NCBI RefSeq assembly: GCF_015207825.1
Contig: NZ_JADEWC010000008.1
Coordinates: forward strand, 1-64,000
Direction of reading: 5' to 3'
Origin: Cyanobacterium stanieri LEGE 03274
GTDB lineage: Bacteria > Cyanobacteriota > Cyanobacteriia > Cyanobacteriales > Cyanobacteriaceae
DNA: 64,000 bases
The first letter of the stretch is position 1, and every line of letters starts with the position of its first letter. The translations under genes were made by a program, and so were the position numbers. This document shows, one piece after another, positions 3,939-19,588 of this stretch. The notes under the pieces are model-generated. The model saw only the letters and a program-made list of their open reading frames with translations. It had not been told where the DNA came from and did no database searches.

Positions 3939-4772
3939 ATGAGGTTTCGTAACCTATTAGTAGCTTTCTTGATTGTATGCTTAGGGTTTTTAGGCGCTTG
4001 TAGTGATGGACAAGCAAAAGCATACGATCCCAACACAATCACCTATGATGAAATTGTTAATACTGGACTAGCTAATAAATGTCCTCAAATTAATGAATTT
4101 ACCCGTGGTTCTATTGATATTAGCCCTGATCAGCCCCTTGCAGTGGTTGATATGTGTTTAGAGCCTGAAGAATATTTTGTTAAAGAAGAGCCTGTTAATA
4201 AAAGAAAAGAGGCGGAATATATCCAAGCCAAAGTATTAACCAGAGATACCACCAGTTTGGAACAAATCAGAGGAAGTATTGTTGCTGATGAGGAAGGAGT
4301 TTTAACTTTCAAAGAGTTTGATGGCATCGATTTCCAAATCATCACTCTTTTATTACCTGGTGGAGATCAAGTTCCTTTTTTCTTTACCATTAAACAATTA
4401 ACTGCTCAAACAGAACCAGGTTTTACTTCTGTTAACAGTTCTACTGATTTTAAAGGTGATTTTAAAGTGCCTTCCTATCGTGGGGCTTCTTTCATCGATC
4501 CAAAAGGACGTGGTTTAACCATTGGTTACGATAATGCTGTGGCTCTTCCTGCTGGCGCTGATAAATCTGAATATGCCCGTAATAATATCAAGAAAGCTGA
4601 GATTATGAAAGGTGAAATGTCTTTACAGATTACCAAGGTTGATGCTGAGACTGGGGAAATTGCTGGAATTTTTGAAAGTGAACAGCCTTCCTCTACTGAT
4701 TTAGGTGCTGAAGATCCTGAAGAAGTTAAAATTCGTGGTTCTTTCTATGCTCGTTTAGAGCCTCAAATTTAA
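3939..4772 (+). CDS. psbO: Photosystem II manganese-stabilising protein PsbO
   Basis: This extrinsic 33-kDa subunit stabilises the Mn4CaO5 cluster on the lumenal face of photosystem II. The 277-residue product starts with a basic and hydrophobic export signal and the lipobox-like LGAC ending at Cys21, followed by an AKA site near residue 28 where signal peptidase I could also cut. Family hallmarks follow: GLANKCPQINEF and VVDMCLEPEEYFVKEE, whose two cysteines form the conserved disulfide, then RGSI and the long beta-barrel to the C-terminus. Length and motif order are complete. It is monocistronic, with a hairpin terminator just downstream. Confidence 0.98.
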   Translation: MRFRNLLVAFLIVCLGFLGACSDGQAKAYDPNTITYDEIVNTGLANKCPQINEFTRGSIDISPDQPLAVVDMCLEPEEYFVKEEPVNKRKEAEYIQAKVLTRDTTSLEQIRGSIVADEEGVLTFKEFDGIDFQIITLLLPGGDQVPFFFTIKQLTAQTEPGFTSVNSSTDFKGDFKVPSYRGASFIDPKGRGLTIGYDNAVALPAGADKSEYARNNIKKAEIMKGEMSLQITKVDAETGEIAGIFESEQPSSTDLGAEDPEEVKIRGSFYARLEPQI

Positions 4773-4801
4773 TCTAGTTCTGGATTTGATAGTTTTTTAT
4801 T

Positions 4802-4837
4802 CCTCAGGCATACTTTTTAAGCTGTCTGGGGATTTTT
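4802..4837 (+). terminator. Putative Rho-independent terminator of psbO
   Basis: A nine-pair stem (CCTCAGGCA at 4802-4810 pairing with TGTCTGGGG at 4823-4831, two G-T pairs) is followed immediately by ATTTTTG. It sits 30 bases after the psbO stop codon. Confidence 0.7.
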
Positions 4838-4991
4838 GTTGGCTAGGATGTTTTAAGGGCGATCGATCAATAATGTTTAGATTCGGTTAACTAATCCGAT
4901 TTAGTATTATTTATGAATGGTTATTAAAAACCTAAATTTTTATCTTCGGTAATTTATTTGATTTTTGAATGTGTAGAAAATATCTATTTCT

Positions 4992-7400
4992 TCAATCAAC
5001 CCCAGGTTTAGGAATATCATCACCAGTTGCATTACCATCTAATAATCGGGCAAATAACTCATTTAAACTGCCATCATTTTCATGATTAACCAATTTAGAT
5101 CTAATTTGATAATTTTCTAGTTTATTTACCAGTTGCTTTGCCAACTCATAATGATGGCTATTTTCTAGCACAAAATCATAATTAATCTCTCGAAATGTTA
5201 ATAGATAAACTAAACAAATTAAAGCGTTTTGAAAATAACCTTTATTTCTATTTTCTTCATAATTTAGAGTTAAACAATAGTGGATAATATCAGAAAAATG
5301 TTGTTTATAATTTAACCATTTATTGGCTTCTTCAAAGTTAAGATACCATAGTAAAATTCTTGCATATCCCCATAAATAGGCTTCTATTTTATAAAACTCT
5401 TTATCTTCCTTTTGAGAATAATTTGAAAATAAATTAAAATACTGTTTTTGTCTATTTAAAACACAAGCTAGTCTCGCCATATTTTGTAAGTGTTCTTTAA
5501 AACTTTTGACATTATTTAAATTTAGTATATTAGAGTCAAAAAGATAATTTAAAGACATATTTTGAGTTAAACCATAACTTTTGCCTAAAAATAATAGAAT
5601 ATCCAGATAAACATTATTTATTGATAGTGCATTTTCTCCTCTAATACTATGAGGTATTCTTCCTCTTAATCTACTTAAATTTTTATTAATTACATCTTCT
5701 AAATCGAAATAGATATTCAATATTTGATTCAGATGCTTTTCACTGTTTATTGGAATAGAATTTAAAATAGGAGGAAAATTGTTATTTGCATCTAATCTTA
5801 ACTTTCTTATTTCTTGAGCATTCCTAATAAAATAAGAACTATTATAGTTAGCTGATTTAATATTGCTTAGTTTCTCTTTTATATTTAATAATATTTGTTC
5901 AAAATATAAATAATTTTCCGATATTTTATCTAGCCCCGCATTGGATAAATTGTTTCGAGTAAATTCACTCATATTTTTAGTAGATATACAAACTAAATTA
6001 TCTAATTCTGGTTTATTTTCTAAAAAGGAATTTAAAACACGATTATATTGATCAATAACTTCTAATTTTGGTGGTTTACCAGGTTGAAGAATAAAACATA
6101 TTTTTATCAATAAATTCTTATCTTTATTTCCATCGTAATATTGATTCTCAATTTTATAGATTATCTTTTTTGATGTTTGTTCATCAATTAAGTATTCTCC
6201 ATTAATAGTAAAAGGTAAATAAACAGAAGAATTTGACATAGTAAACTCTTGTCTAAATTCTTGATTATTCTTACTATAATATTCCCCATAGATTTTTTCC
6301 TCTTTTTCCCCCTGATAGCAAATTTTTTCAGGTAAACTAATTTCTATCTCTTGATTTTTTTCTTCTCCTGCCACAAAAAAGCTAATTTTGTCTAAATGTT
6401 GCCCATAAAGAGGAAATTCTTGATTTTTTGCCTCTAACCAAATATCTTTAAATTTTTTAAAATTATCAGTTTTAACGCTTATTCCATAACTTGACAATGA
6501 AGTATTAACTAATGGTAAATCATAGCTACTAATCACTAAAAAGTTATACTTATCTTGATTATTTTCGATAATCTTATTTAATTCTTGTAAAGGTAATTCT
6601 TTACTGATAATTTCTTTAATTTCCTCTCCGTTAAGATGATAATGATAAAATTTTTCTCCCAAGTAAATTATGATAGGGAAAGATGTGATATTATTATCCT
6701 GTTGAGAGTTGATTAGTTTAAAAATATTAATTTTCTGAAGATATTTAATTAAATCTTTTTTCAGAGTAATATCTAATTTTAGTTGTTTTAGAATATTTTG
6801 TGCTATTCTGGAAAAGATACGTGCTACGTAGCATATCCCTTCGGGATCGCACCTCTCCTCATACATAAAAGACAATTTTAAATATTGATAATTGTCGAGA
6901 TTACGAGTATCAATGATAGGAATAGAATAGTTGCTTTTTGGATGAGATTCAGAAGTTAAAGGAATAATTTGAGAAGGGGTAAAATCATCTAAATTATAAA
7001 TAATCAAAGGCTTATCCAGATTATCAAATTTAATAATATCATCAACAAAATTCCAATAGTAAAAAACAGGTGAAAATAGATAAGATGCCCTTAATAAACT
7101 TAAACCAAAAGCATTAATAGGGGGAATAATAAAAATTTCTTCCTCCCGATTATCTTCAATAAAAAAACCTAACTTTTCCTTAGATATTCTTGATTGATGA
7201 CTAGGTGTTAATTGTGAAGGCAACAAAGAAGGTAAAAAAGGAAACTCTAAAAACTCAATATTTTTATTTCTGTCAATAAAATGTTTATATTCTAATAGTA
7301 AATCTTGCTTATTTTTGTGATTAAGATTAATATTTTCTACAAAAATTTGGGCGTATTGACAATATTCTATATAGGATTCAAGGTTAAAAAATTTACTCAT
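4992..7400 (-). CDS. Large protein of unknown function, last gene of the McrB-like operon
   Basis: I do not recognise this protein. The frame is open to 7463, but the ATG at 7400 (MSKFFNLESY) is the more natural start, giving 802 residues; the upstream 21 codons are short, basic and hydrophobic. The N-terminal third mixes helices with hydrophobic strands. The centre is strand-rich, including LIKICFILQPGKPPKLEV near residue 455. The C-terminal 300 residues are helical, with WGYARILLWYLNFEEANKWL, and the very end is polar. No transmembrane helix, nucleotide-binding loop or nuclease motif is evident. It is fifth and last in the operon behind the McrB-like, DUF2357, helicase and PLD genes, so a role as a target-binding or scaffold subunit is inferred. 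It is very AT-rich and contains an in-frame palindromic repeat at 6821-6852. Confidence 0.6.
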   Translation of the reverse strand: MSKFFNLESYIEYCQYAQIFVENINLNHKNKQDLLLEYKHFIDRNKNIEFLEFPFLPSLLPSQLTPSHQSRISKEKLGFFIEDNREEEIFIIPPINAFGLSLLRASYLFSPVFYYWNFVDDIIKFDNLDKPLIIYNLDDFTPSQIIPLTSESHPKSNYSIPIIDTRNLDNYQYLKLSFMYEERCDPEGICYVARIFSRIAQNILKQLKLDITLKKDLIKYLQKINIFKLINSQQDNNITSFPIIIYLGEKFYHYHLNGEEIKEIISKELPLQELNKIIENNQDKYNFLVISSYDLPLVNTSLSSYGISVKTDNFKKFKDIWLEAKNQEFPLYGQHLDKISFFVAGEEKNQEIEISLPEKICYQGEKEEKIYGEYYSKNNQEFRQEFTMSNSSVYLPFTINGEYLIDEQTSKKIIYKIENQYYDGNKDKNLLIKICFILQPGKPPKLEVIDQYNRVLNSFLENKPELDNLVCISTKNMSEFTRNNLSNAGLDKISENYLYFEQILLNIKEKLSNIKSANYNSSYFIRNAQEIRKLRLDANNNFPPILNSIPINSEKHLNQILNIYFDLEDVINKNLSRLRGRIPHSIRGENALSINNVYLDILLFLGKSYGLTQNMSLNYLFDSNILNLNNVKSFKEHLQNMARLACVLNRQKQYFNLFSNYSQKEDKEFYKIEAYLWGYARILLWYLNFEEANKWLNYKQHFSDIIHYCLTLNYEENRNKGYFQNALICLVYLLTFREINYDFVLENSHHYELAKQLVNKLENYQIRSKLVNHENDGSLNELFARLLDGNATGDDIPKPGVD
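6821..6852. repeat. Palindromic repeat inserted in frame within the operon's last gene
   Basis: Two palindromes stand side by side: GCTACGTAGC at 6823-6832 and ATCCCTTCGGGAT at 6835-6847, followed by CGCAC. This GC-rich block is conspicuous in an AT-rich gene and resembles short intergenic palindromic repeats of cyanobacteria. It is translated as part of EERCDPEGICYVARIF without breaking the frame. Confidence 0.6.
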
Positions 7401-7477
7401 AATCTTTACCATTAATTTTAATAATAATTTCAACTTATAAACTGCTTTGCAATAAATTGACAAAGCTAATAGATAAC

Positions 7478-7493
7478 GTTCAATAAATTGAAC
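7478..7493. repeat. Half-copy of the two-hairpin repeat family
   Basis: A perfect 16-base palindrome GTTCAATAAATTGAAC followed by TA matches the first hairpin of the family seen complete at 31064 and 51976. It lies in the 221-base gap between the PLD gene and the last operon gene. Confidence 0.6.
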
Positions 7494-7621
7494 TAAAAAA
7501 ATGTCATTTTAACTTTACATTAGCTTTTAAATATCATATTTTTATTAAGGTGGTTTAGATAGTATTTTATCTTTATTAAAAAAAGCGAAGGGGAATAAAT
7601 ATTTTTATAAATTATTGAAAA

Positions 7622-9286
7622 TTAGTATAAATGATGTAATTGTTGTTTAATAGTTTCTATTAGTTTTAAATTAGTAATTTTATAGGTTAAATCATGAAGA
7701 CCATAATGAGTAAAAGTGAAATCTTGACTACTAATATAGGCAACTTCATTGCTAAGAATCACAACCTTACCATGCAGAAAAGGAATTTTTTTCGCCGGTA
7801 AATCACTACCATTAAAATTGCCATAGTAAATTTCACAAGATAGACTTTTTAACAAATTAGCTTGTATTCCATTGGGTTTAAAATTACGAGTATAAATAAT
7901 AATTTTGCTGCGAGGATTTTCCCTAAATTGTTGCAAACTAAGAGTTAAATCTTCTTCATATTGATAAGAATTGAGAAAACAACTATCGAAATCAATACTA
8001 ATATTTTTAGGTGTTAAGTTTTGTATTTGAAATTCTCCCATCTTCGGCACAAATTGTGCCTTACTTTTATTTTCCCAAAGGTAGTTAAAATAATTAATTA
8101 AACATTGATATTCAGGGGAATGAGAAAACAAGATTCCTGTCTCAATATTTCTGCTTAAACTACCTCCCGTTAAATTACACGAACCCAAATAAGCTGATTT
8201 TTCGCTAATATAAGTTTTAAGGTGAAAATAGCCACTACGAAAACCAATTCCTTTTTCTGCTAATAATTGTAAGCATTGTGTTTTCTTTTCATTAGATGAG
8301 CCATATTCTAAATAATCCTCTTTATCTTCTACATTTTCATCAACTGTTTTTATCACCTCATCGTTAAAATCCGTCAAAATCCAAATTCCTAAAGGTAAAC
8401 TAGAGGCTTTATTAACAATTAGATTAATAATATCTTTATCTTCAAGACGATAACTACTAATTAATAAAAATTTCTCAGCTTTTTCAATTAAATCATAAAG
8501 CAATTCTCGATGTTTTCCTTTATTTATTGTTATCTGATTATCGTCAGTCATCATTATATTATCTGATAAAGACGAAATTAAATTAATAGGAGATAAAGTT
8601 AAATATTTTTGTCGATAAGTCTTTACTAATAAATTCTCAGAAGTCAAAGAAGAATTATTTTTAAGAATCGTGATAGCTTCCTGTAAATTCATATGTAAAT
8701 CTTCTATTTTTAATAAAACTATACAGTCATCATAGAGAGAAATAACACAATTTTCGGTATCAGGATTTTGGAGAAATTTATCAATAATTGTTAGGGGTTG
8801 CTCTTGGATGATAAGATTAAGTTCATAAAAAGCATTTTCTCTTTTTTGCTTGATAATTGGATTATTCTGATTTTCTGATAACTTAAGTTGATAAACCCCC
8901 TCACATACATAAATTAAGTTGACTGGAATTTGCTGATTATCTGAAGCCAAAATTAAGGTATCAATTCCTTCCGATTCTTCAGGGATAAATTGATAGTCAA
9001 ATTCTTTCGGTTGAAAATTACGACTTGATTCTAGTGATGGTTTAATTTTCTGATTGATTAAGATTGCCGATTTACCTAGATTTTTTTCTAATAAATTATT
9101 AACTATACTGGGAGGAAGGAAATTTAAGCCAAAAGATTTATTAATAGTCGATACATTAGATATTTTTTGTTGAGTGGCGATGGCTTGAATATCATTAATG
9201 ATAGTTTTTAATGGAGTTGCTTTTCTGATTTCTCCATCCTTTGCTATTTTCTGATATTTACCTTTAATGTGCCAATATATTTCCAT
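7622..9286 (-). CDS. Phospholipase D-type (HxK) protein, probable nuclease of the operon
   Basis: The 554-residue protein carries two phospholipase-D signature sites. The first is H355-x-K357 followed by G368-S-x-N371 (YFHLKTY, then YLGSCNLTGG); the second is H505-x-K507 followed by S519-S520-Q521 (FLHGKVV, then AYISSQD). The Asp of the HxK(x4)D motif is Glu362 in the first site and not obvious in the second. The two HxK histidines normally form one active site for phosphodiester hydrolysis. The N-terminal 250 residues are not recognisable. A good ribosome binding site (GAGGTGA) precedes the ATG. Position four in the operon next to an SF1 helicase suggests a nucleic acid substrate; lipid hydrolysis is less likely in this context. 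Confidence 0.8.
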   Translation of the reverse strand: MEIYWHIKGKYQKIAKDGEIRKATPLKTIINDIQAIATQQKISNVSTINKSFGLNFLPPSIVNNLLEKNLGKSAILINQKIKPSLESSRNFQPKEFDYQFIPEESEGIDTLILASDNQQIPVNLIYVCEGVYQLKLSENQNNPIIKQKRENAFYELNLIIQEQPLTIIDKFLQNPDTENCVISLYDDCIVLLKIEDLHMNLQEAITILKNNSSLTSENLLVKTYRQKYLTLSPINLISSLSDNIMMTDDNQITINKGKHRELLYDLIEKAEKFLLISSYRLEDKDIINLIVNKASSLPLGIWILTDFNDEVIKTVDENVEDKEDYLEYGSSNEKKTQCLQLLAEKGIGFRSGYFHLKTYISEKSAYLGSCNLTGGSLSRNIETGILFSHSPEYQCLINYFNYLWENKSKAQFVPKMGEFQIQNLTPKNISIDFDSCFLNSYQYEEDLTLSLQQFRENPRSKIIIYTRNFKPNGIQANLLKSLSCEIYYGNFNGSDLPAKKIPFLHGKVVILSNEVAYISSQDFTFTHYGLHDLTYKITNLKLIETIKQQLHHLY

Positions 9287-9398
9287 GTTTTCACCTCAAA
9301 ATTAATATAATATTGTGTTAAAAATCAAACAGAAAGATAGAAAAATTAAACAAGTATATAGGCAAGATGCCTGTTTTACGGAGACAGATTATTATGAG

Positions 9399-10823
9399 TT
9401 AAATAGTTGCTGATGTTAAGGCTAGATCTCGTTTAATCGTTATGGTATTATCTTGCAGTAAGATGTTTAAGTTTGAATTTTCATAGTGGGTTTTATCTCC
9501 TAAAATTGTGATGGAATATTTTGCCCTAGTTAAGGCTAGTTTTAATTCTGTTAAGGTAGGATTATCTTGATTATTTTTATCAACGACGATTAGTAAATTT
9601 TCTGTTTCTTCCCCATACCAGTTAGAGATAGATTTTATTATCTGATTGTTTGAATTAGAGTCTAATAGTTGTTGAATGAGAGTAGATGTATTTTCCGAAA
9701 AGGTTAGTATTTGATAATCCTTATTTTCTAGTAAATATTGTTTTAAGACGATAATCATTTGTTGAAAATTGACAATATCATGCCAGATTAAACAGTTTTT
9801 TTCTAGTAACACAGGTAGATTGTCTGTCTTTCTGGGGGTGTTTAATGAATGAGAAACGGGGGTATAAGGATAGTCATTGTAAAACAAGGGAAAAATTTTT
9901 CTGGCTAAGTCGATAGTTAAGCGATGGTTTTCTTTTATTTCCAGACGATAAGCAGGAGATAAATTATAAAATAGTCTTTTCAAAAAATTATCATTATCTT
10001 TGTCTAATTCTCCCAATAAGATTAATTTTTGACTATTCTTTGCTATTCTTTCAATTACATTTTGAGTCAATAAATGACTATCTTCAATAATGACTACATC
10101 AAAAATTTTGTCGGGAATTAAATCAATATCACTCACTAAACAGGTGTGAGGAAAATTGACAGTATTAATAGTTAATTGGGTTAATTCTTCTAAGTCGTTA
10201 TCGGCAAGATTTTGATAGTTTTGTTTTAGATATTCTCTTTGAGTTAGGAGGTGAGAAAATTTTTTGATTTTTGCCATTAATAACATACATCTGTTATCGG
10301 AGATTTGCGGAAATTTTTGCTTAATCCTTTTTCTCAATTTCTCTTGATTTGTTTCTGTTATTAACTTTGACAATTTTTGGATGTTAATTTCTAAATTATC
10401 AAAGATAGTATCGGGTAAAAGATAAGGAGGAGTGAAGTTTATTTCTGGATTTTGTATTTTTGATTTTAACCAGTTTTTGACTATTTCATAATATTTTATT
10501 TCCTGATTTATCTGTAATGGTTTAAGACTAAGATTTTGATATTGATTTAAACTACTTTGATGGGGAGAAATAATTAAGGTTGAGTTTTGATTTTTTATAG
10601 CCGTGTCAAGAATAGCTTTGGCTATTTCTGTTTTTCCACTAGCTGGATTTCCTGCAATGATGACTAGAGGAAAATTCGATAATCCTAATTCAATGGCTTC
10701 TTTTTGTTTCACTCGAAAGGGGAAGTTACCTTGATAATGAGGTAAGTTTAATTGGTTTCTTGTGTTAATAAAACTTATAGGTTTTTCCGTTATTTGATTG
10801 ATTATCTCTAAGGGTAAATTCAT
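9399..10823 (-). CDS. Compact SF1-type helicase/NTPase
   Basis: The 474-residue protein shows superfamily 1 helicase motifs in order: a Q-motif-like FPFRVKQKEAIELGL (about 34-48), Walker A GNPASGKT (58-65), a Walker B position reading VVIIED (243-248), motif III LILLGELD (267-274), ENHRL (about 298-302) and motif VI ALTRAK (430-435). This order fits UvrD/Dna2/UPF1-like enzymes, but the protein is short, lacking large 1B and 2B insertions. The usual D-E of motif II reads E-D. It is third in the operon, between the DUF2357 and PLD genes, 79 bases and 112 bases away. ATP-driven unwinding or translocation feeding a nuclease is inferred. A non-processive NTPase is the alternative. Confidence 0.78.
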   Translation of the reverse strand: MNLPLEIINQITEKPISFINTRNQLNLPHYQGNFPFRVKQKEAIELGLSNFPLVIIAGNPASGKTEIAKAILDTAIKNQNSTLIISPHQSSLNQYQNLSLKPLQINQEIKYYEIVKNWLKSKIQNPEINFTPPYLLPDTIFDNLEINIQKLSKLITETNQEKLRKRIKQKFPQISDNRCMLLMAKIKKFSHLLTQREYLKQNYQNLADNDLEELTQLTINTVNFPHTCLVSDIDLIPDKIFDVVIIEDSHLLTQNVIERIAKNSQKLILLGELDKDNDNFLKRLFYNLSPAYRLEIKENHRLTIDLARKIFPLFYNDYPYTPVSHSLNTPRKTDNLPVLLEKNCLIWHDIVNFQQMIIVLKQYLLENKDYQILTFSENTSTLIQQLLDSNSNNQIIKSISNWYGEETENLLIVVDKNNQDNPTLTELKLALTRAKYSITILGDKTHYENSNLNILLQDNTITIKRDLALTSATI

Positions 10824-10902
10824 AGTGTTTAATTAATTTAGAATGATGATTTTTGCGTTAATTCATAAAGGATAGAAGGGATAAATCCCTAACTACAAAC
10901 CT

Positions 10903-12447
10903 CTATTGCCATTCTGCTAACCAATAACAAATGTTTTCTATAATTAGCTTGACTCCTGTTTCTAAATTTTCTTTTAAAGGATGAGATATTTTGATAAGAT
11001 TAATCTTACTCTCTATAATTTCTTCTGTTTCTTTTTCTGATGATTCTGGGGAGGGATAAAGATAAAAACAAATAGGCAACTTATCTTTAGATTTTTCTTT
11101 TATCTTCTTTAAGATTTCTGCTTCTGGTTGATACCAAAATACCCATATTAACCATTGATAATTAGAAAATTCTGGCTCTCTGTCTGTTATTCTTTGTATG
11201 GTGATATTTAACTGAAAATCTCCTTTTGTTATGTTATTAGTATGTTGTTGAAGATTGAAAATAAATGCTGATTTGTTTAATAGGCATAATATCTTAAATT
11301 GTTGGTTATCTTTTAAATATTTGCCTTCTTTGGGTATGTCTAAAATTTCTATTTTTGTTTGACAATCAAGATAACTTCCTTCTAATTTTAATAAGGCTTC
11401 TAACCATAAAATTTTGACAACATCCACTAATAAGGCTTGACGAAATCCCCAAAATTTTTCTTTCTCTGTGCGTCTTTTTAAGTAGTCTTGATAGGCTTGA
11501 TAAAAACTTCGATAAATGGGATTTTGTTGTAAAACATAGTTGGGCTTTCCTGTAAATATTGTTGTACGAGGAATTGTTTTGACACTTGGCTCTTGACGAA
11601 AACGCTCTATTGCTATATATAATGATTTAGCTTCTTCATAATCACTGCGATAGTCTTGACATTCTAAATGTAATAAATCGCAAAATCCTTTTAAAAATCG
11701 ATTTTCTGGGGTATTATAGTTTTGATAGCGTTTAATGCCCATTAATTCTTGTCTTGCTCCTGCTTTTTCGATCGCATCTTGCCCCGGGCGACGTACATAA
11801 TCTCTTAAACAATAGGCATCCATTTCTTGAATATGTCCTAAAGGCATCATCTCCGCTACACGATTAAGTTGAGAGCGTAATTTAGGAGCAATTAATTCTA
11901 ATTTATGTCTTAGTTCATAGCGTTTATTGAGTGCTAAAATAAGGGGTAAACGGGCATCTTCTTGACTTAATTTTTCTAAACTTTTTTCAATATTTAAAGG
12001 AGTAGTTTTTTTGTTTTGATGATGGTTAGTTAAACTGTGAAATAATCCAATAAAAAGGCTGATGCTTTCTGCTGTGGTGCGATCGCACTTTTGTCCTAAC
12101 TCTTTTAGTAAATTTTTAGCTAAATCCTCATCATTGGTTAATTGTGTCTCGTCTAATACCTCATCTTCAAGGTAAAATTTAATTACTTCTCCTTGTTTAG
12201 TTTGAATATTAATTAATTGAGTTAAATTATTATTAGTCTCAAAATCAGCAACTTGTATCAAGGGAAATCCAATTTCATATAATCCTTTATCTCTTTCCAT
12301 TAAGAAATGATATTGATGTTGTAAATCTTCATCATCGGCTAATTTGAGAAAAGGGCGATTTTTACTTTTTAAGGTGACAATAGACTCTGAGTTAAACGAG
12401 TTAAATTTATTGTCTAAATAATCAGCAATACTCGGATAATAAAACAT
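10903..12447 (-). CDS. DUF2357 (McrC-like) protein without visible nuclease motif
   Basis: The 514-residue protein has the DUF2357 hallmark NTPENRF at residues 245-251, followed by a helical segment and the LWLEALLKLEG stretch (about 350-360) that precedes the nuclease domain in McrC-like relatives. In those relatives a PD-(D/E)xK core follows; here I see no clear D...(D/E)xK arrangement in residues 360-514. It may therefore be a structural adaptor for the McrB-like ring, or a strongly diverged nuclease. It is second in the operon, 99 bases after the AAA+ gene, the usual McrB-McrC order. A HIP1 site lies near 12081. Confidence 0.75.
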   Translation of the reverse strand: MFYYPSIADYLDNKFNSFNSESIVTLKSKNRPFLKLADDEDLQHQYHFLMERDKGLYEIGFPLIQVADFETNNNLTQLINIQTKQGEVIKFYLEDEVLDETQLTNDEDLAKNLLKELGQKCDRTTAESISLFIGLFHSLTNHHQNKKTTPLNIEKSLEKLSQEDARLPLILALNKRYELRHKLELIAPKLRSQLNRVAEMMPLGHIQEMDAYCLRDYVRRPGQDAIEKAGARQELMGIKRYQNYNTPENRFLKGFCDLLHLECQDYRSDYEEAKSLYIAIERFRQEPSVKTIPRTTIFTGKPNYVLQQNPIYRSFYQAYQDYLKRRTEKEKFWGFRQALLVDVVKILWLEALLKLEGSYLDCQTKIEILDIPKEGKYLKDNQQFKILCLLNKSAFIFNLQQHTNNITKGDFQLNITIQRITDREPEFSNYQWLIWVFWYQPEAEILKKIKEKSKDKLPICFYLYPSPESSEKETEEIIESKINLIKISHPLKENLETGVKLIIENICYWLAEWQ

Positions 12448-12495
12448 TTCCTATCGTGAATAGTTGATGGTAAATAGTTAATAATTCCTCCTTTG

Positions 12496-12516
12496 TTAAG
12501 GGGGGCTAGGGGGGAT
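12496..12516. repeat. G-rich short dispersed repeat
   Basis: The sequence TTAAGGGGGGCTAGGGGGGAT, here broken as TTAAGGGGGG, CTA and GGGGGGAT, is a known kind of cyanobacterial intergenic repeat. It lies in the 99-base gap between the AAA+ and DUF2357 genes. Confidence 0.5.
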
Positions 12517-12546
12517 CATTGTGGTATATTGATTATTGAGAATCAC

Positions 12547-15135
12547 CTAATCGTTACTTGTTTCCTGATAAACCATCCCCTTCCATTGAAACTGCCCATA
12601 TTGCCCATTTCGTGCCACCTCAAAAGCCTGTTTTAAAGACTCATCCCCCAATTCATCAATGATTCTTTTCAACTCCTCTAACTGGGGTTTAACATTGCTA
12701 TCCTCTACCATCAAACCCCTTAACTTCGGTAACAATTTTTGTCCAAATTGATCTGAGATAGCTTTTTTTCTGATATTATCGTCTTGTAGAGCATTCGGAT
12801 AGTTTACCACATACTTTGCGATCGCCTGATAAACTCGATGGGCAAAAGGTCTTCCCAAAGCCTCCATAATGTTATTAACTCGATTAACATAGTCTTTGAC
12901 ACTCTCTAAAACACTGCTACCCTCTTGGGGTTGTTGACACCAACTGTTAAAAGTTTCCCAAGACAAGTATTCTTTAGGAATGTCAACCTTCCGTTTAACT
13001 CCCCTTAACTTCAATTCGGGAGGTTTGCCAAAAGTTAATACATTTGCCCTATCTAACACTTTATCTGATAAAGACTGAGTGGTTTCATCCTCATTCATTG
13101 TGCCTACAAACAAAAATTGATCGGGAATTTTTACCCTTTTGTCTTCCTTTGATAACTTTAAACTACCTGCCTCAATTTCTAAAAAAGTATCGTCATTTCT
13201 TCTGCTTTCTAACTTAGATAAAAAATCACTAAAATAATATTCAACCCTTGCTAAATTCATCTCATCAAGCAATACTAAAACCATGCGATTTTTTAAGTCA
13301 TTTTGCCTTTCATGTTGATAGAGATAACGCATTAACTCAGTAGGTTTATATTTCTTTTCAATATAGTTAAAAAACCCTTGTAAGTCTTGGGGAGAATCCC
13401 AACGGGGTTGCACAGGTAACATCACCAAAGGTGCACCAATAAACTCACCATAGGCTTGGGGTAACTCACTTTTTCCCGTGCCACTAATCCCGGCTAAAAT
13501 TACTAAAGCAGAAATATCTTGCACCTTTAAAGAAGTGTGAAAAGCATTAATAACCCTATCAGAAAAAGTTAAGCCTTTTGCTTTTAAATAACTCTTCAAT
13601 TGATTTAAGAAATCAGATTCACTCTCAAAATATTTTTCTATTTGTGCTTTAACTTCTACGGGAATCTTTAAGGCTTGGAAAGCATAATCAACACTATTTT
13701 TTATCTCCTCTAAATCCTCTTTCAATCTTTTAATTTCCTTTTGTAACTCTTTAATTTTACCTTCTTTTCTTTGTATCTCTATTTCTCTCCATTTAATTTC
13801 ATTTTCTAAATTTTCTTTTTCTGTTTCTAAATATTCTATTTTGCGTTTTAAACTACCTAAATCATTCCTTTTAATTCTAAATTGTGCCTCTAATTCATCT
13901 AATTCTCTTCTTAATATATCAGCCTGTTGAGCCTTTGTTTCAATCGTTTGAATTTCTTGTAAAATTCTATCTCTTTCTGATTCTAAACGAGGAATTTCTA
14001 AAACTAAAGTTTGCTGTTGATTTTCTAAGGTTTCGTATTCATTTTTTAGGGCATCATAGCTACTTCTAAAAATTTCTAATTCAGCAGTTTTTTGATTGAG
14101 ATTTTCTAGCTTATGGTTTAAGTTTATTAATTCATTTTGTTTTTGTTCAAATTCTTCTTTTATGTTATTTAATTTAATCTCATATTTTTCATTCTCATTA
14201 ATTTTATTTTGAATTATCTCTTTTTGATGATTAAGATTGTCAATATCATCTAAAATTTGATTTTGCTTATTTTCTAAAATGCTATATTCTTCTTTTAAAG
14301 CATTATAATTTACATTAAATATCTCTAAATCTTCTTTTTTTTGCTTAAAATTATTTATTTGATTATTTAATTCTTTTAGTCGATATTTTTTATGTTCAAA
14401 TTCTTCTTGAATATTATTTAATCTTATCTGGTACTTTTCCTGCTCAATAATTTTTTCTTGAATTAATTTTTTCGTGTTGTTAAGAATCTCAATTTCTTGT
14501 AAGATTTTATTCTGTTCCTTTTCCAAGATGGTATATTTTTGGTTTAAAGCCTCATAGTTGACTTTGGCAATCTCTAAATTTTCTTTACTTTTACTTAATT
14601 TGTCTATATTTTGCTTTAAATCATCTAATTCAGCTTGTTTTTGCAAAAATTGACTAGATACTAAAGATAAATTATTTTTTTGATTTTCTCTTTCTTTTAT
14701 TTGCTCTTTAATATTATTTAATTCTGCTGTTGATTCATCAATTTTTATTTTTAATATTTTATTTTGTTTAATTCTTGCTTCTAACTCTTCTAAATTATAA
14801 TGTTCTTGTTTAATGGTAATAATTCTTGTTTCTAAATCTTCTTTTTCCTCATTTAAATTATTAATTTTTGTTGTCAATAATTTTTGCTGTTGTTGTAAAT
14901 AATCCAGTTGTGGTTTAAATCCAAATGCTTCTTTCAATTCCCGATTTTTTTCGTCTAATTTATCTACGTCTTTCTTAATTAAAGTAGTAGAAATATAGCC
15001 TCCAGAAGTTGTAGCGAAAAAACCGACTATACTTTGTGATAAATTACCACCAGTCACTGCAATAACTAACGTTGCTAAACCACCAGTAACAGCAGAGGGA
15101 ATGATTTGAGAAATAAACTGAGGTGGTTTTTTCAT
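12547..15135 (-). CDS. Membrane-anchored coiled-coil McrB-like AAA+ ATPase/GTPase
   Basis: The 862-residue protein has three parts. Residues 8-53 contain two hydrophobic segments separated by a GGN turn, a likely membrane hairpin. Residues 55-480 are almost continuous coiled coil, including tandem 83-residue units at 187-269, 270-352 and a diverged third from 353. Residues 480-862 form an AAA+ domain of the McrB branch: Walker A GISGTGKS (549-556), VQPRWDSPQDLQGFF (575-589), Walker B LVLLDEMN (620-627), sensor GTMNEDETT (678-686) and LDRAN (694-698). McrB-type rings power type IV restriction. It is first in the operon, followed by the DUF2357 partner. A membrane-tethered sensor or motor is inferred. 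No methyltransferase is nearby. Confidence 0.85.
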   Translation of the reverse strand: MKKPPQFISQIIPSAVTGGLATLVIAVTGGNLSQSIVGFFATTSGGYISTTLIKKDVDKLDEKNRELKEAFGFKPQLDYLQQQQKLLTTKINNLNEEKEDLETRIITIKQEHYNLEELEARIKQNKILKIKIDESTAELNNIKEQIKERENQKNNLSLVSSQFLQKQAELDDLKQNIDKLSKSKENLEIAKVNYEALNQKYTILEKEQNKILQEIEILNNTKKLIQEKIIEQEKYQIRLNNIQEEFEHKKYRLKELNNQINNFKQKKEDLEIFNVNYNALKEEYSILENKQNQILDDIDNLNHQKEIIQNKINENEKYEIKLNNIKEEFEQKQNELINLNHKLENLNQKTAELEIFRSSYDALKNEYETLENQQQTLVLEIPRLESERDRILQEIQTIETKAQQADILRRELDELEAQFRIKRNDLGSLKRKIEYLETEKENLENEIKWREIEIQRKEGKIKELQKEIKRLKEDLEEIKNSVDYAFQALKIPVEVKAQIEKYFESESDFLNQLKSYLKAKGLTFSDRVINAFHTSLKVQDISALVILAGISGTGKSELPQAYGEFIGAPLVMLPVQPRWDSPQDLQGFFNYIEKKYKPTELMRYLYQHERQNDLKNRMVLVLLDEMNLARVEYYFSDFLSKLESRRNDDTFLEIEAGSLKLSKEDKRVKIPDQFLFVGTMNEDETTQSLSDKVLDRANVLTFGKPPELKLRGVKRKVDIPKEYLSWETFNSWCQQPQEGSSVLESVKDYVNRVNNIMEALGRPFAHRVYQAIAKYVVNYPNALQDDNIRKKAISDQFGQKLLPKLRGLMVEDSNVKPQLEELKRIIDELGDESLKQAFEVARNGQYGQFQWKGMVYQETSND

Positions 15136-15310
15136 AAATTGTATTTGATTAATAGCCTATGTATGTAATCTTAATACTCGAGCTTAGAGAGAATAAATAT
15201 TTTCATGATTTTTAACATTCCATTTTTGTCAGACATTCTAAGCCCTTAAATAAGCTAAAGTAGTTAATATACATAACTTATAGAAGCAATCATATATAAA
15301 TAACTACTCC
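15136..15310. promoter_or_regulatory. Divergent promoter region between the McrB-like operon and metH
   Basis: This 175-base AT-rich gap must start both the leftward five-gene operon and rightward metH. TTGTCA at 15226-15231 could be a -35 element for metH, with no strong -10 at ideal spacing. I see no cobalamin-riboswitch-like conserved box. Confidence 0.4.
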
Positions 15311-18921: not shown

Positions 18922-19515
18922 TTAATCATCCCATCCTTTACCATAGTCTTTTACAGGGTATTTTACCCAACTATCTCTTAACCAGTCTCTACCTTTCTCC
19001 TGTAAATACCAATGTACGCTGCTTTCTAACCAATCATAAGGAGAGTTAATGTAGTTATGTTTCACAGGATTATAATGTATGTAGTTCAGGGTTGTGTAAT
19101 AATGTCTTTTGGAGCGAATGGCGCGATCGCTAAAACGATACCATACTTTACGTCCTCTTTGATTATCTTCTAAATTCCATTGATAGGAAGTAACACCATG
19201 AATTGCTTTAAAAATTGAGGAGAGAATTAATAAATTGGGCAAATAGACCAATAAATGATAATGATTCACCAAAATTACCCATCCTCTAATTTCTATTCCT
19301 TCATGGATAAATTTTTCAAACAAGAGGTTTAATAATTGTTGACGACGAGATGAAGTATTTAAAATTTTTTGATGTTGATAACAGGCAATTGTAAGTAAAT
19401 AAAAGCCCTCAATTTGTATGGGATGAGGCGGAGAATGAGCGGGAAATCCTTTTTTAAGTCTCTCTTGCACTAATTCCAATTTTTGTTGATGACTTAATTT
19501 ATGATACTCATACAT
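18922..19515 (-). CDS. REP-associated tyrosine (Y1/HUH) transposase
   Basis: The HUH motif reads NHYHLLVYL (about residues 85-93 from the chosen start), and the catalytic tyrosine lies in LNYIHYNPVKH. These are characteristic of the RAYT branch of IS200/IS605 Y1 transposases, which act on single-stranded REP hairpins. The frame is open to 19569, but that extension runs into the right palindromic element, so the ATG at 19513-19515 (MYEYHKLS) is preferred, giving 197 residues. Length is normal and the gene looks intact. Domesticated RAYTs often stay single copy and mobilise only REP elements. Confidence 0.85.
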   Translation of the reverse strand: MYEYHKLSHQQKLELVQERLKKGFPAHSPPHPIQIEGFYLLTIACYQHQKILNTSSRRQQLLNLLFEKFIHEGIEIRGWVILVNHYHLLVYLPNLLILSSIFKAIHGVTSYQWNLEDNQRGRKVWYRFSDRAIRSKRHYYTTLNYIHYNPVKHNYINSPYDWLESSVHWYLQEKGRDWLRDSWVKYPVKDYGKGWDD

Positions 19516-19522
19516 AATCCTA

Positions 19523-19588
19523 GTTTGTAGTAATGGCTTTAGCCTTGATTCTACTGATAATAATGCCACTAAAGTGGCAACTACAAAC
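19523..19588. repeat. REP-like palindromic element, right of the transposase
   Basis: Outer arms GTTTGTAGT (19523-19531) and ACTACAAAC (19580-19588) enclose GGCTTTAGCC and GCCACTAAAGTGGC hairpins. It shares the arms of the left element and of the solo copy at 56259. Confidence 0.75.

What the first reader, a model, noticed from the sequence alone, without database searches (positions are those of the whole stretch)
4992..15135. Five-gene McrB-like operon with helicase and PLD protein: candidate uncharacterised defence system
Seen: five minus-strand genes with gaps of about 80-220 bases encode, in order, a coiled-coil McrB-like AAA+ protein with an N-terminal membrane hairpin, a DUF2357 protein, a compact SF1 helicase, a two-HxK PLD protein and a large unassigned protein. 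Known: McrB plus DUF2357/McrC defines type IV restriction, and the coiled-coil nuclease tandem (CoCoNuT) class, as I remember it, joins coiled-coil McrB homologues with SF1 helicase and PLD domains, aimed at RNA. Inferred: this is a related but membrane-tethered variant with helicase and PLD on separate genes and an extra large subunit. It has no methyltransferase and sits between the housekeeping genes psbO and metH.
Basis: partly seen in the sequence, partly recalled or inferred. Interest (0 to 1): 0.85.

Follow-up and report, generated by a model that had tools for sequence, protein, structure and literature searches.

The report
Type III-C CoCoNuT defence operon (cyanobacterium)
Five neighbouring genes in this cyanobacterium match a known but apparently laboratory-untested antiviral gene set, the Type III-C CoCoNuT; its motor protein probably carries a membrane anchor and a twin set sits in a standard laboratory strain, which makes it testable.

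Summary
In detail: five intact minus-strand genes at 4992-15135, in a low-G+C block at a synteny break. The interpretation "uncharacterised variant" is not right: gene content matches the Type III-C CoCoNuT described in 2024 (PMC11090510). They are CnuB (coiled-coil GTPase with the NxD motif), CnuC (McrC-like, no conserved nuclease motif), CnuH (UPF1-like helicase), CnuE (two PLD motifs) and CnuD. The "large unassigned protein" is CnuD: its only Foldseek matches at E<=0.001 are Hsp70s, followed by HEAT-like repeats; the model is mediocre and sequence comparison with DnaK is not significant. The gene order recurs across cyanobacteria, patchily (CnuE in 13 of 386 genomes), often decayed, with signs of transfer between genera. 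Two points go beyond what I could read in print: CnuB has a conserved N-terminal two-segment hydrophobic hairpin, so membrane tethering looks general; and Synechocystis PCC 6803 plasmid pSYSX carries two identical copies, whose CnuE is, by my numbering, Slr6074, a protein with a published but unexplained growth phenotype. New member of a known kind; RNA targeting and defence remain untested.

The parts
12547..15135 (-). cnuB: N-terminal hydrophobic hairpin (about residues 11-53), long coiled coil, McrB-like GTPase with Walker A GISGTGKS, Walker B LVLLDEMN, signature NED (NxD)
   Evidence: AAA_5 7.4e-6; PDC-M26A 2.6e-42; motifs; hairpin; rhizobial CnuB 1.6e-85
10903..12447 (-). cnuC: beta-rich N-terminus, DUF2357, C-terminal PD-(D/E)xK-like fold without a conserved catalytic motif
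   Evidence: DUF2357 8.2e-9; model, pLDDT 82; top three VIA rows are McrC, Z 8.8-8.9; no conserved D..(D/E)xK
9399..10823 (-). cnuH: UPF1-like SF1 helicase; motif I intact, motif II degenerate
   Evidence: ZNFX1, UPF1, SMUBP-2, SEN1, DNA2 by profile; motifs in 17 rows
7622..9286 (-). cnuE: N-terminal region followed by two PLD-type HxK active-site motifs (H355/K357, H505/K507), predicted nuclease effector
   Evidence: PLDc_2 1.5e-17, PLDc 1.7e-6; both motifs invariant in 18 of 18
4992..7400 (-). cnuD: probable degenerate Hsp70-like NBD/SBD plus C-terminal HEAT-like helical repeats; start corrected from 7463
   Evidence: alignment; model; five of five Foldseek hits at E<=0.001 are Hsp70; HEAT/ARM at 490-795
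14977..15105 (-). DNA for the CnuB N-terminal hydrophobic hairpin (best 19-residue segments start at residues 11 and 35)
4773..15241 (.). block without DNA match in the fetched 10-12 kb psbO and metH surroundings of three genus mates; low G+C; probable acquired island

Best explanation
The operon is a complete, intact Type III-C CoCoNuT (cnuB-cnuC-cnuH-cnuE-cnuD), probably acquired horizontally. Most likely mechanism: CnuB rings, driven by GTP and stimulated by the CnuC stalk, sit at the membrane through their N-terminal hairpins and reach into the cytoplasm by long coiled coils. CnuC keeps a nuclease-like domain without a recognisable active site, probably to bind nucleic acid. CnuD, an Hsp70-like protein with HEAT repeats, senses or delivers the target, presumably aberrant or viral RNA or stalled translation. 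CnuH, a UPF1-like motor, couples to CnuE, the PLD nuclease that cuts. The expected outcome is destruction of viral nucleic acid, or growth arrest if host RNA is cut. Shown here by computation: composition, predicted folds, conserved order, spread and decay, conserved hairpin. Inferred: complex formation, membrane location, RNA as target, defence. Confidence: identity as Type III-C about 0.9; membrane tether about 0.6; RNA-directed defence about 0.5.
For: The main published components of Type III-C are found: NxD GTPase, DUF2357 with McrC-like fold, UPF1-like helicase, double PLD, separate protein with Hsp70-like and HEAT-like folds. B, C and H are significantly related to a rhizobial operon of Type III-B layout (1.6e-85, 2.3e-22, 4.6e-16). 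Fixed order: of 19 loci found with the CnuD profile, 13 hold all five in order (some genes split or truncated), 4 are cut by a contig end and 2 are decayed. Of 13 genomes found with the CnuE profile among 386 of the phylum, 12 (the window's own included) hold all five in order, one of them (G053) only as remnants; G032 lacks CnuD. The titles of all 19 CnuD loci name cyanobacteria, as Type III-C should. Mobility: window versus another genus (G010) dS 0.15-0.35 for H, D and the readable parts of C and E, but 0.78 for metH and 1.18 for psbO. One of three rhizobial relatives lies beside Shedu and a restriction endonuclease; pSYSX also carries Type I RM, ArdA and a ubiquitin-like cassette.
Against: CnuD's Hsp70 link rests on a model of mean pLDDT 69, pTM 0.47, in which nearly all of the first 114 residues are under 50; the Hsp70 hits have TM-scores of only 0.14-0.21 and rmsd of 16-27. 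Profile-profile comparison with host DnaKs (E 0.53), with the rhizobial CnuD candidate (E 0.37) and a profile search of PDB sequences (no hit) gave nothing. Foldseek alone did not find McrC for CnuC at E<=0.001, and Z near 9 is only a little above what models without a clear match give (note). The wHTH of CnuE was not tested. CnuH motif II is non-canonical in all 17 rows, which may mean weak ATPase. Chromosomal flanks are mostly ordinary genes, not defence islands. No direct evidence on RNA, membrane or phage.
Confidence: 0.8

Rival explanations
1. A distinct, unnamed McrB-based system that only resembles CoCoNuTs.
For: The membrane hairpin of CnuB is not mentioned for Type III in the main text of the CoCoNuT paper or its preprint (word searches). 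CnuH motif II is non-canonical. The Hsp70 assignment of CnuD has no sequence support.
Against: Composition, cyanobacterial distribution, absence of TerY-P genes beside the operon and the separate Hsp70-like gene match the published Type III-C; the hairpin is general in the group.
Confidence: 0.06
2. A Type III-C operon whose target is DNA (phage or plasmid), not RNA: CnuH works on single-stranded DNA and the PLD nuclease cuts DNA.
For: PLD-fold proteins matched here are exonucleases PLD3/PLD4 and a virion nicking-joining enzyme; DNA2 and SMUBP-2 are among the helicase matches; McrBC relatives cut DNA (recalled).
Against: UPF1, SEN1 and ZNFX1, known as RNA helicases (recalled), score at least as well; the Hsp70-like CnuD is argued in PMC11090510 to favour RNA.
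Confidence: 0.3
3. A host physiology or RNA quality-control module rather than defence, tied to carbon metabolism.
For: Slr6074, by my numbering CnuE of PCC 6803, is lowered in five carbon-regulation mutants and its knockout is reported to grow badly (PMC10315926, passages); Slr6012, by my numbering CnuB, is raised about 2.5-fold in one of the engineered producer strains (PMC4526308, one passage).
Against: CnuE present in only 13 of 386 genomes of the phylum, copies frequently decayed, signs of transfer between genera, on a plasmid in the model strain.
Confidence: 0.15

Closest known systems
Type III-C CoCoNuT (Bell et al. 2024, PMC11090510)
   Same: NxD coiled-coil GTPase, DUF2357 protein without catalytic motif, UPF1-like helicase, two-PLD effector, separate Hsp70-like/HEAT gene, no TerY-P, cyanobacteria
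   Different: No difference found in composition; the CnuB membrane hairpin and non-canonical CnuH motif II are not described in the parts I could read (figures and supplements not seen)
Type III-B CoCoNuT-like operon, Rhizobium leguminosarum plasmid p2 (locus L121)
   Same: Significant B, C and H relationship; a further gene of similar size after C; CnuB with one N-terminal hydrophobic segment
   Different: Helicase fused to a C-terminal nuclease domain (MTES_1575), extra coiled-coil protein, no PLD gene in the operon; that it is III-B is my reading of the published layout
Synechocystis PCC 6803 pSYSX operon (slr6012-slr6016 and slr6071-slr6075 by my numbering)
   Same: Same five genes in the same order; CnuC 45%, CnuE 38%, CnuD 31% identical
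   Different: Two identical plasmid copies; genes overlap or touch
Canonical McrBC (E. coli)
   Same: McrB-like GTPase plus McrC-like partner
   Different: NxxD motif, DNA-binding domain and active nuclease in McrBC (recalled and PMC11090510); NxD, coiled coil and no conserved nuclease motif here

Membership tests
CoCoNuT (any type) | McrB-like GTPase with NxD instead of NxxD | tested here: met
   NED in the window and 10 further CnuB rows, 11 of 16 rows scanned; 2 rows are fragments without the domain, 3 are other McrB paralogues that my pattern did not match. A wider set gave the same: only those 3 paralogues and fragments lack it
CoCoNuT (any type) | Long coiled coil fused to the GTPase | tested here: met
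   Matches to coiled-coil families between about residues 166 and 528 and the sequence itself; no dedicated coiled-coil program was run
CoCoNuT (any type) | GTPase falls in the CoCoNuT clade of the published phylogeny | not tested
   Published reference sequences were not on hand; only a profile link to rhizobial CnuB
Type III-C CoCoNuT | CnuC with DUF2357 and inactivated PD-(D/E)xK domain | tested here: met
   DUF2357 above cut-off; top three VIA rows McrC, Z 8.8-8.9 at rmsd 7.6-10.6 over 244-251 residues, then several PD-(D/E)xK enzymes; Foldseek itself gave no E<=0.001; no conserved D..(D/E)xK in 20 rows, though D342 and D410 are conserved acids
Type III-C CoCoNuT | Immunoglobulin-like N-terminal domain of CnuC | tested here: inconclusive
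   Model is beta-rich at residues 24-94 but no Ig match was listed
Type III-C CoCoNuT | UPF1-like SF1 helicase CnuH on its own gene | tested here: met
   Profile A4: ZNFX1 2.4e-22, UPF1 4e-16, SMUBP-2, SEN1, DNA2
Type III-C CoCoNuT | Helical, partly coiled-coil insertion after Walker A of CnuH | tested here: inconclusive
   About 180 residues lie between motif I and motif II; no structure was predicted
Type III-C CoCoNuT | CnuE with two PLD nuclease domains | tested here: met
   PLDc_2 and PLDc; two invariant HxK motifs in 18 of 18 rows
Type III-C CoCoNuT | Distorted elongated wHTH at the N-terminus of CnuE | not tested
Type III-C CoCoNuT | Hsp70-like NBD/SBD plus HEAT-like repeats as a separate gene (CnuD) | tested here: met
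   By fold only: Foldseek's five hits at E<=0.001 (of 834 at E<=10) are all Hsp70, at low TM-scores; HEAT/ARM rows up to Z 13.0 at 490-795, a value helical repeats can reach by common arrangement; model pLDDT 69; sequence-level tests not significant
Type III-C CoCoNuT | No TerY-P triad | tested here: met
   Operon is bounded by psbO and metH
Type III-C CoCoNuT | Mainly in Cyanobacteriota | tested here: met
   19 of 19 loci of the CnuD scan by record title; 4 of 4 plasmid records for CnuD and for CnuE
Canonical McrBC | NxxD motif and DNA-specificity domain on McrB | tested here: not met
   NxD and coiled coil instead

The most novel reading that the evidence does not exclude
[quoted passage not shown] and the unexplained growth defect of the Synechocystis slr6074 knockout comes from an unbalanced CoCoNuT.
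Probability: 0.3. Interest if true: 0.7.

Novelty: new member of a known kind. Interest (0 to 1): 0.48.

Why it matters
My searches of one open-access library listed no experimental work on a Type III-C CoCoNuT. This locus adds an intact, probably recently transferred example, suggests that the whole subtype works at the membrane, and points to Synechocystis PCC 6803, a genetically tractable strain with two plasmid copies and existing proteomics, as the place to test what these systems do. It also offers an explanation for a published orphan phenotype (Slr6074).

Tried and rejected
Sequence-level proof that CnuD is Hsp70-like: hmmsearch of the CnuD profile on PDB sequences gave 0 hits at E<=10; hhalign of 23 CnuD rows against three host DnaK-family proteins gave E 0.53, while the unrelated CnuC, CnuE and CnuH profiles gave 0.037, 0.13 and 0.26 against the same target, so sequence says nothing either way; against the rhizobial CnuD candidate E 0.37. 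Foldseek on the CnuC model gave no hit at E<=0.001 and listed APOBEC and other chance rows first; only the VIA second look ranked McrC first.

Defence-island test: 133 flanking ORFs of 21 loci were listed; 89 of them, from 16 loci, were scanned. No flanking Pfam family recurs in more than 3 of 89; scattered PADLOC matches (Type III CRISPR RAMPs, SNF2-type helicases called ZorD/DpdE by the library; first 25 of 66 families seen) are not enough to call islands. So chromosomal context does not support defence; pSYSX and one of three rhizobial loci do.

Mobile carriers: no CnuC match in 50,697 phage records at E<=1e-5; a pattern-based scan of viral contigs found no CnuD relative; no tRNA in the window; no convincing terminal repeats at the block edges.

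Considered and rejected: type IV restriction of modified DNA by CnuC (no conserved nuclease motif), chance clustering (fixed order across families), artefact of ORF calling (homologues agree; only the CnuD start differed). The statement in PMC7296061 that Slr6012 has an HSDR_N domain looks like a misprint for Slr6102, which the same paper names as the R subunit (passages).

The hairpin test uses a hydrophobicity scale recalled from memory, not a trained membrane predictor. Background: 177 other ORFs of at least 250 aa; 10 have two N-terminal segments, none of these 10 is without further segments. Distinct CnuB rows of at least 600 aa of the Type III-C kind: 15 of 17 in L062-L100 and 4 of 4 further ones in L115-L119 show exactly two. 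L094 has its second segment just under threshold and L069 has both on a separate upstream ORF. Window and pSYSX also show two. The two CnuB of loci without H, E and D (L072, L074) show two; two other McrB paralogues (L078, L079) show none. Split or shorter rows (L063, L093, L075) were left out of the count.

Numbering note: slr6012-16 and slr6071-75 come from counting consecutive protein accessions on pSYSX, anchored by Slr6031, Slr6041, Slr6056, Slr6057, Slr6090 and Slr6095 in papers; no record shown here prints these tags.

Full report
What is there. The window lies in a genome of 3.19 Mb in 67 contigs, cyanobacterial to judge by psbO and by its named relatives. Five uninterrupted minus-strand ORFs occupy 15135-4992. 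Pfam gives AAA_5, DUF2357, weak helicase models, PLDc_2/PLDc and nothing above cut-off. Homologues start at residue 22 of the last ORF, so it probably begins at the ATG at 7400. G+C of the 2-kb blocks over the operon is 0.25-0.33; the rest of the window is 0.33-0.45.

Is it one system? Searches of 100 genomes (own and 99 relatives) found the DUF2357 gene in 15, the large protein in 12 and the helicase in 10. They coincide far beyond chance. The five genes keep one order; in most other loci their ends overlap or touch, while the window has gaps of 79-221 bases. A pattern-based scan of 84,980 species with the large-protein profile gave 19 loci, all with cyanobacterial titles. Thirteen of 19 hold all five genes in order (some split or truncated), four are cut by a contig end, two are decayed. 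Starting instead from the PLD protein, 13 of 386 genomes of the phylum match. Twelve of these, the window's own included, hold all five in order, G053 only as remnants; G032 lacks the large protein. The two sets share several genomes.

What each protein is. CnuB has Walker A, Walker B and an NED signature, that is NxD rather than NxxD. CnuC was modelled at pLDDT 82; the three best VIA rows are McrC structures (Z 8.8-8.9), followed by several PD-(D/E)xK restriction and CARF nucleases, although Foldseek alone gave nothing at E<=0.001. Twenty rows show no conserved D..(D/E)xK pair, though two acids (D342, D410) are conserved. The CnuH profile finds ZNFX1, UPF1, SMUBP-2, SEN1 and DNA2. CnuE has two invariant HxK motifs in 18 of 18 rows. 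The large protein was modelled at pLDDT 69. Its five Foldseek hits at E<=0.001 are DnaK, BiP, Ssb and GRP78 (two chains), at low TM-scores of 0.14-0.21; residues 490-795 match HEAT/ARM repeats. Sequence comparisons do not reach significance. That would fit the degenerate Hsp70-like domains described in print, but this is the weakest link.

Comparison with print. Sections 6, 7 and 9 of PMC11090510 were read, the rest as abstract and passages. Type III-C is described there by these parts: CnuB, CnuC with inactivated nuclease, CnuH, a CnuE with a distorted wHTH and two PLD domains, a separate Hsp70-like CnuD with HEAT-like repeats, no TerY-P, mainly Cyanobacteriota. No tested feature failed; the wHTH and the tree position were not tested, the Ig-like domain and the helicase insertion stayed inconclusive. 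So this is a new member of a known kind, not a new system.

How it got here. DNA homology to three genus mates ends at 4771-4772 on the psbO side and restarts at 15242 on the metH side. psbO and metH are not neighbours in any of the 12 family members that hold both: in seven they lie on one contig at least 25 kb apart, in five on different contigs. Operon genes of the window and of a different genus (G010) differ at dS 0.15-0.35 (H and D whole, C and E in part; B is split there), whereas metH and psbO of the same pair differ at 0.78 and 1.18. CnuB against G007 gives 0.42 versus 0.84 and 1.07. This is what recent transfer predicts. dN/dS of 0.17-0.25 means constraint, looser than for metH or psbO; G010's own copy is interrupted. 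Several related copies are decayed: G007, G010, the second copy of G012, G053, L099, L100.

The membrane hairpin. CnuB starts with two hydrophobic, glycine-rich segments before the coiled coil. Exactly two such segments, and none later, occur in 19 of 21 distinct homologous CnuB rows, and also in the window and in pSYSX; the two exceptions are a near miss and a split ORF. None of 177 other ORFs shows this pattern. Two of two rhizobial CnuB tested, and the coiled-coil proteins beside them, each have one hydrophobic segment at the N-terminus. Word searches for membrane terms in the main text of PMC11090510 and of the preprint PMC10542128 found no such statement for the Type III CnuB; supplements and figures were not available.

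A twin in a model strain. Synechocystis PCC 6803 plasmid pSYSX carries the five genes twice, identical over 9153 bp, inside a known duplication (PMC10899382, passages). Counting protein accessions between published anchors makes them slr6012-slr6016 and slr6071-slr6075. PMC10315926 (passages) reports Slr6074 lowered in five regulatory mutants and states that its knockout has severe growth defects, to be reported separately; by my numbering Slr6074 is CnuE. PMC4526308 (one passage) lists Slr6012, by my numbering CnuB, as raised about 2.5-fold in strain SAW041. Both mappings are inference. The plasmid also holds a Type I RM system, ArdA, a ubiquitin-like cassette and toxin-antitoxin genes.

Mechanism. 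The most likely reading is a membrane-anchored GTPase scaffold (CnuB-CnuC) with an Hsp70-like sensor or adaptor (CnuD) that recruits a UPF1-like motor (CnuH) and a PLD nuclease (CnuE) to viral or aberrant RNA. RNA, defence and complex formation are inferred from family knowledge and from PMC11090510, not shown. CnuH motif II is not the canonical DE in any of 17 rows: the first position is E in 15 and A in 2, so the motor may be slow or mainly a switch. A DNA target and a physiological role remain open rivals.

Verdict. Real, intact, non-random, correctly placed near CoCoNuTs, but already classified. Its value lies in the hairpin and in the ready test strain.

Noticed in passing
L072, L071/L073, L074 (genomes G050, G072, G022): A CnuB with the same hairpin (seen in G050 and G022) and a CnuC occur without H, E and D; side by side in G022, on separate contigs in G050, among ordinary genes. 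Possibly a reduced or domesticated B-C pair.
   Followed up: partly
window 9399-10823 and 16 homologues: CnuH motif II lacks the canonical DE (first position E or A, second D, E, N or S) while motifs I and VI are intact.
   Followed up: partly
metH ends in G004, G011, G013, G014; L103: Short extra copies of the 5' or 3' end of metH lie near metH or, in G013, on another contig, suggesting repeated rearrangement there.
   Followed up: no
window 18922-19569 (minus): ORF that looks like a REP-associated tyrosine transposase (recalled resemblance) just beyond metH; the DNA is also present beside metH in G003 (L104).
   Followed up: no
L119 (genome G425), 10547-12389: Two extra short copies of the 5' part of cnuE and an unrelated 247-aa ORF lie between cnuH and cnuE.
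   Followed up: no
L070 (genome G032): B-C-H-E present but no CnuD beside it or elsewhere in the genome.
   Followed up: partly
L120/L124, plasmid pSYSX: The operon copies sit in exact duplicates (7256 + 9153 + 7231 bp identical), each followed by one of two plasmid replication genes (slr6031, slr6090).
   Followed up: partly
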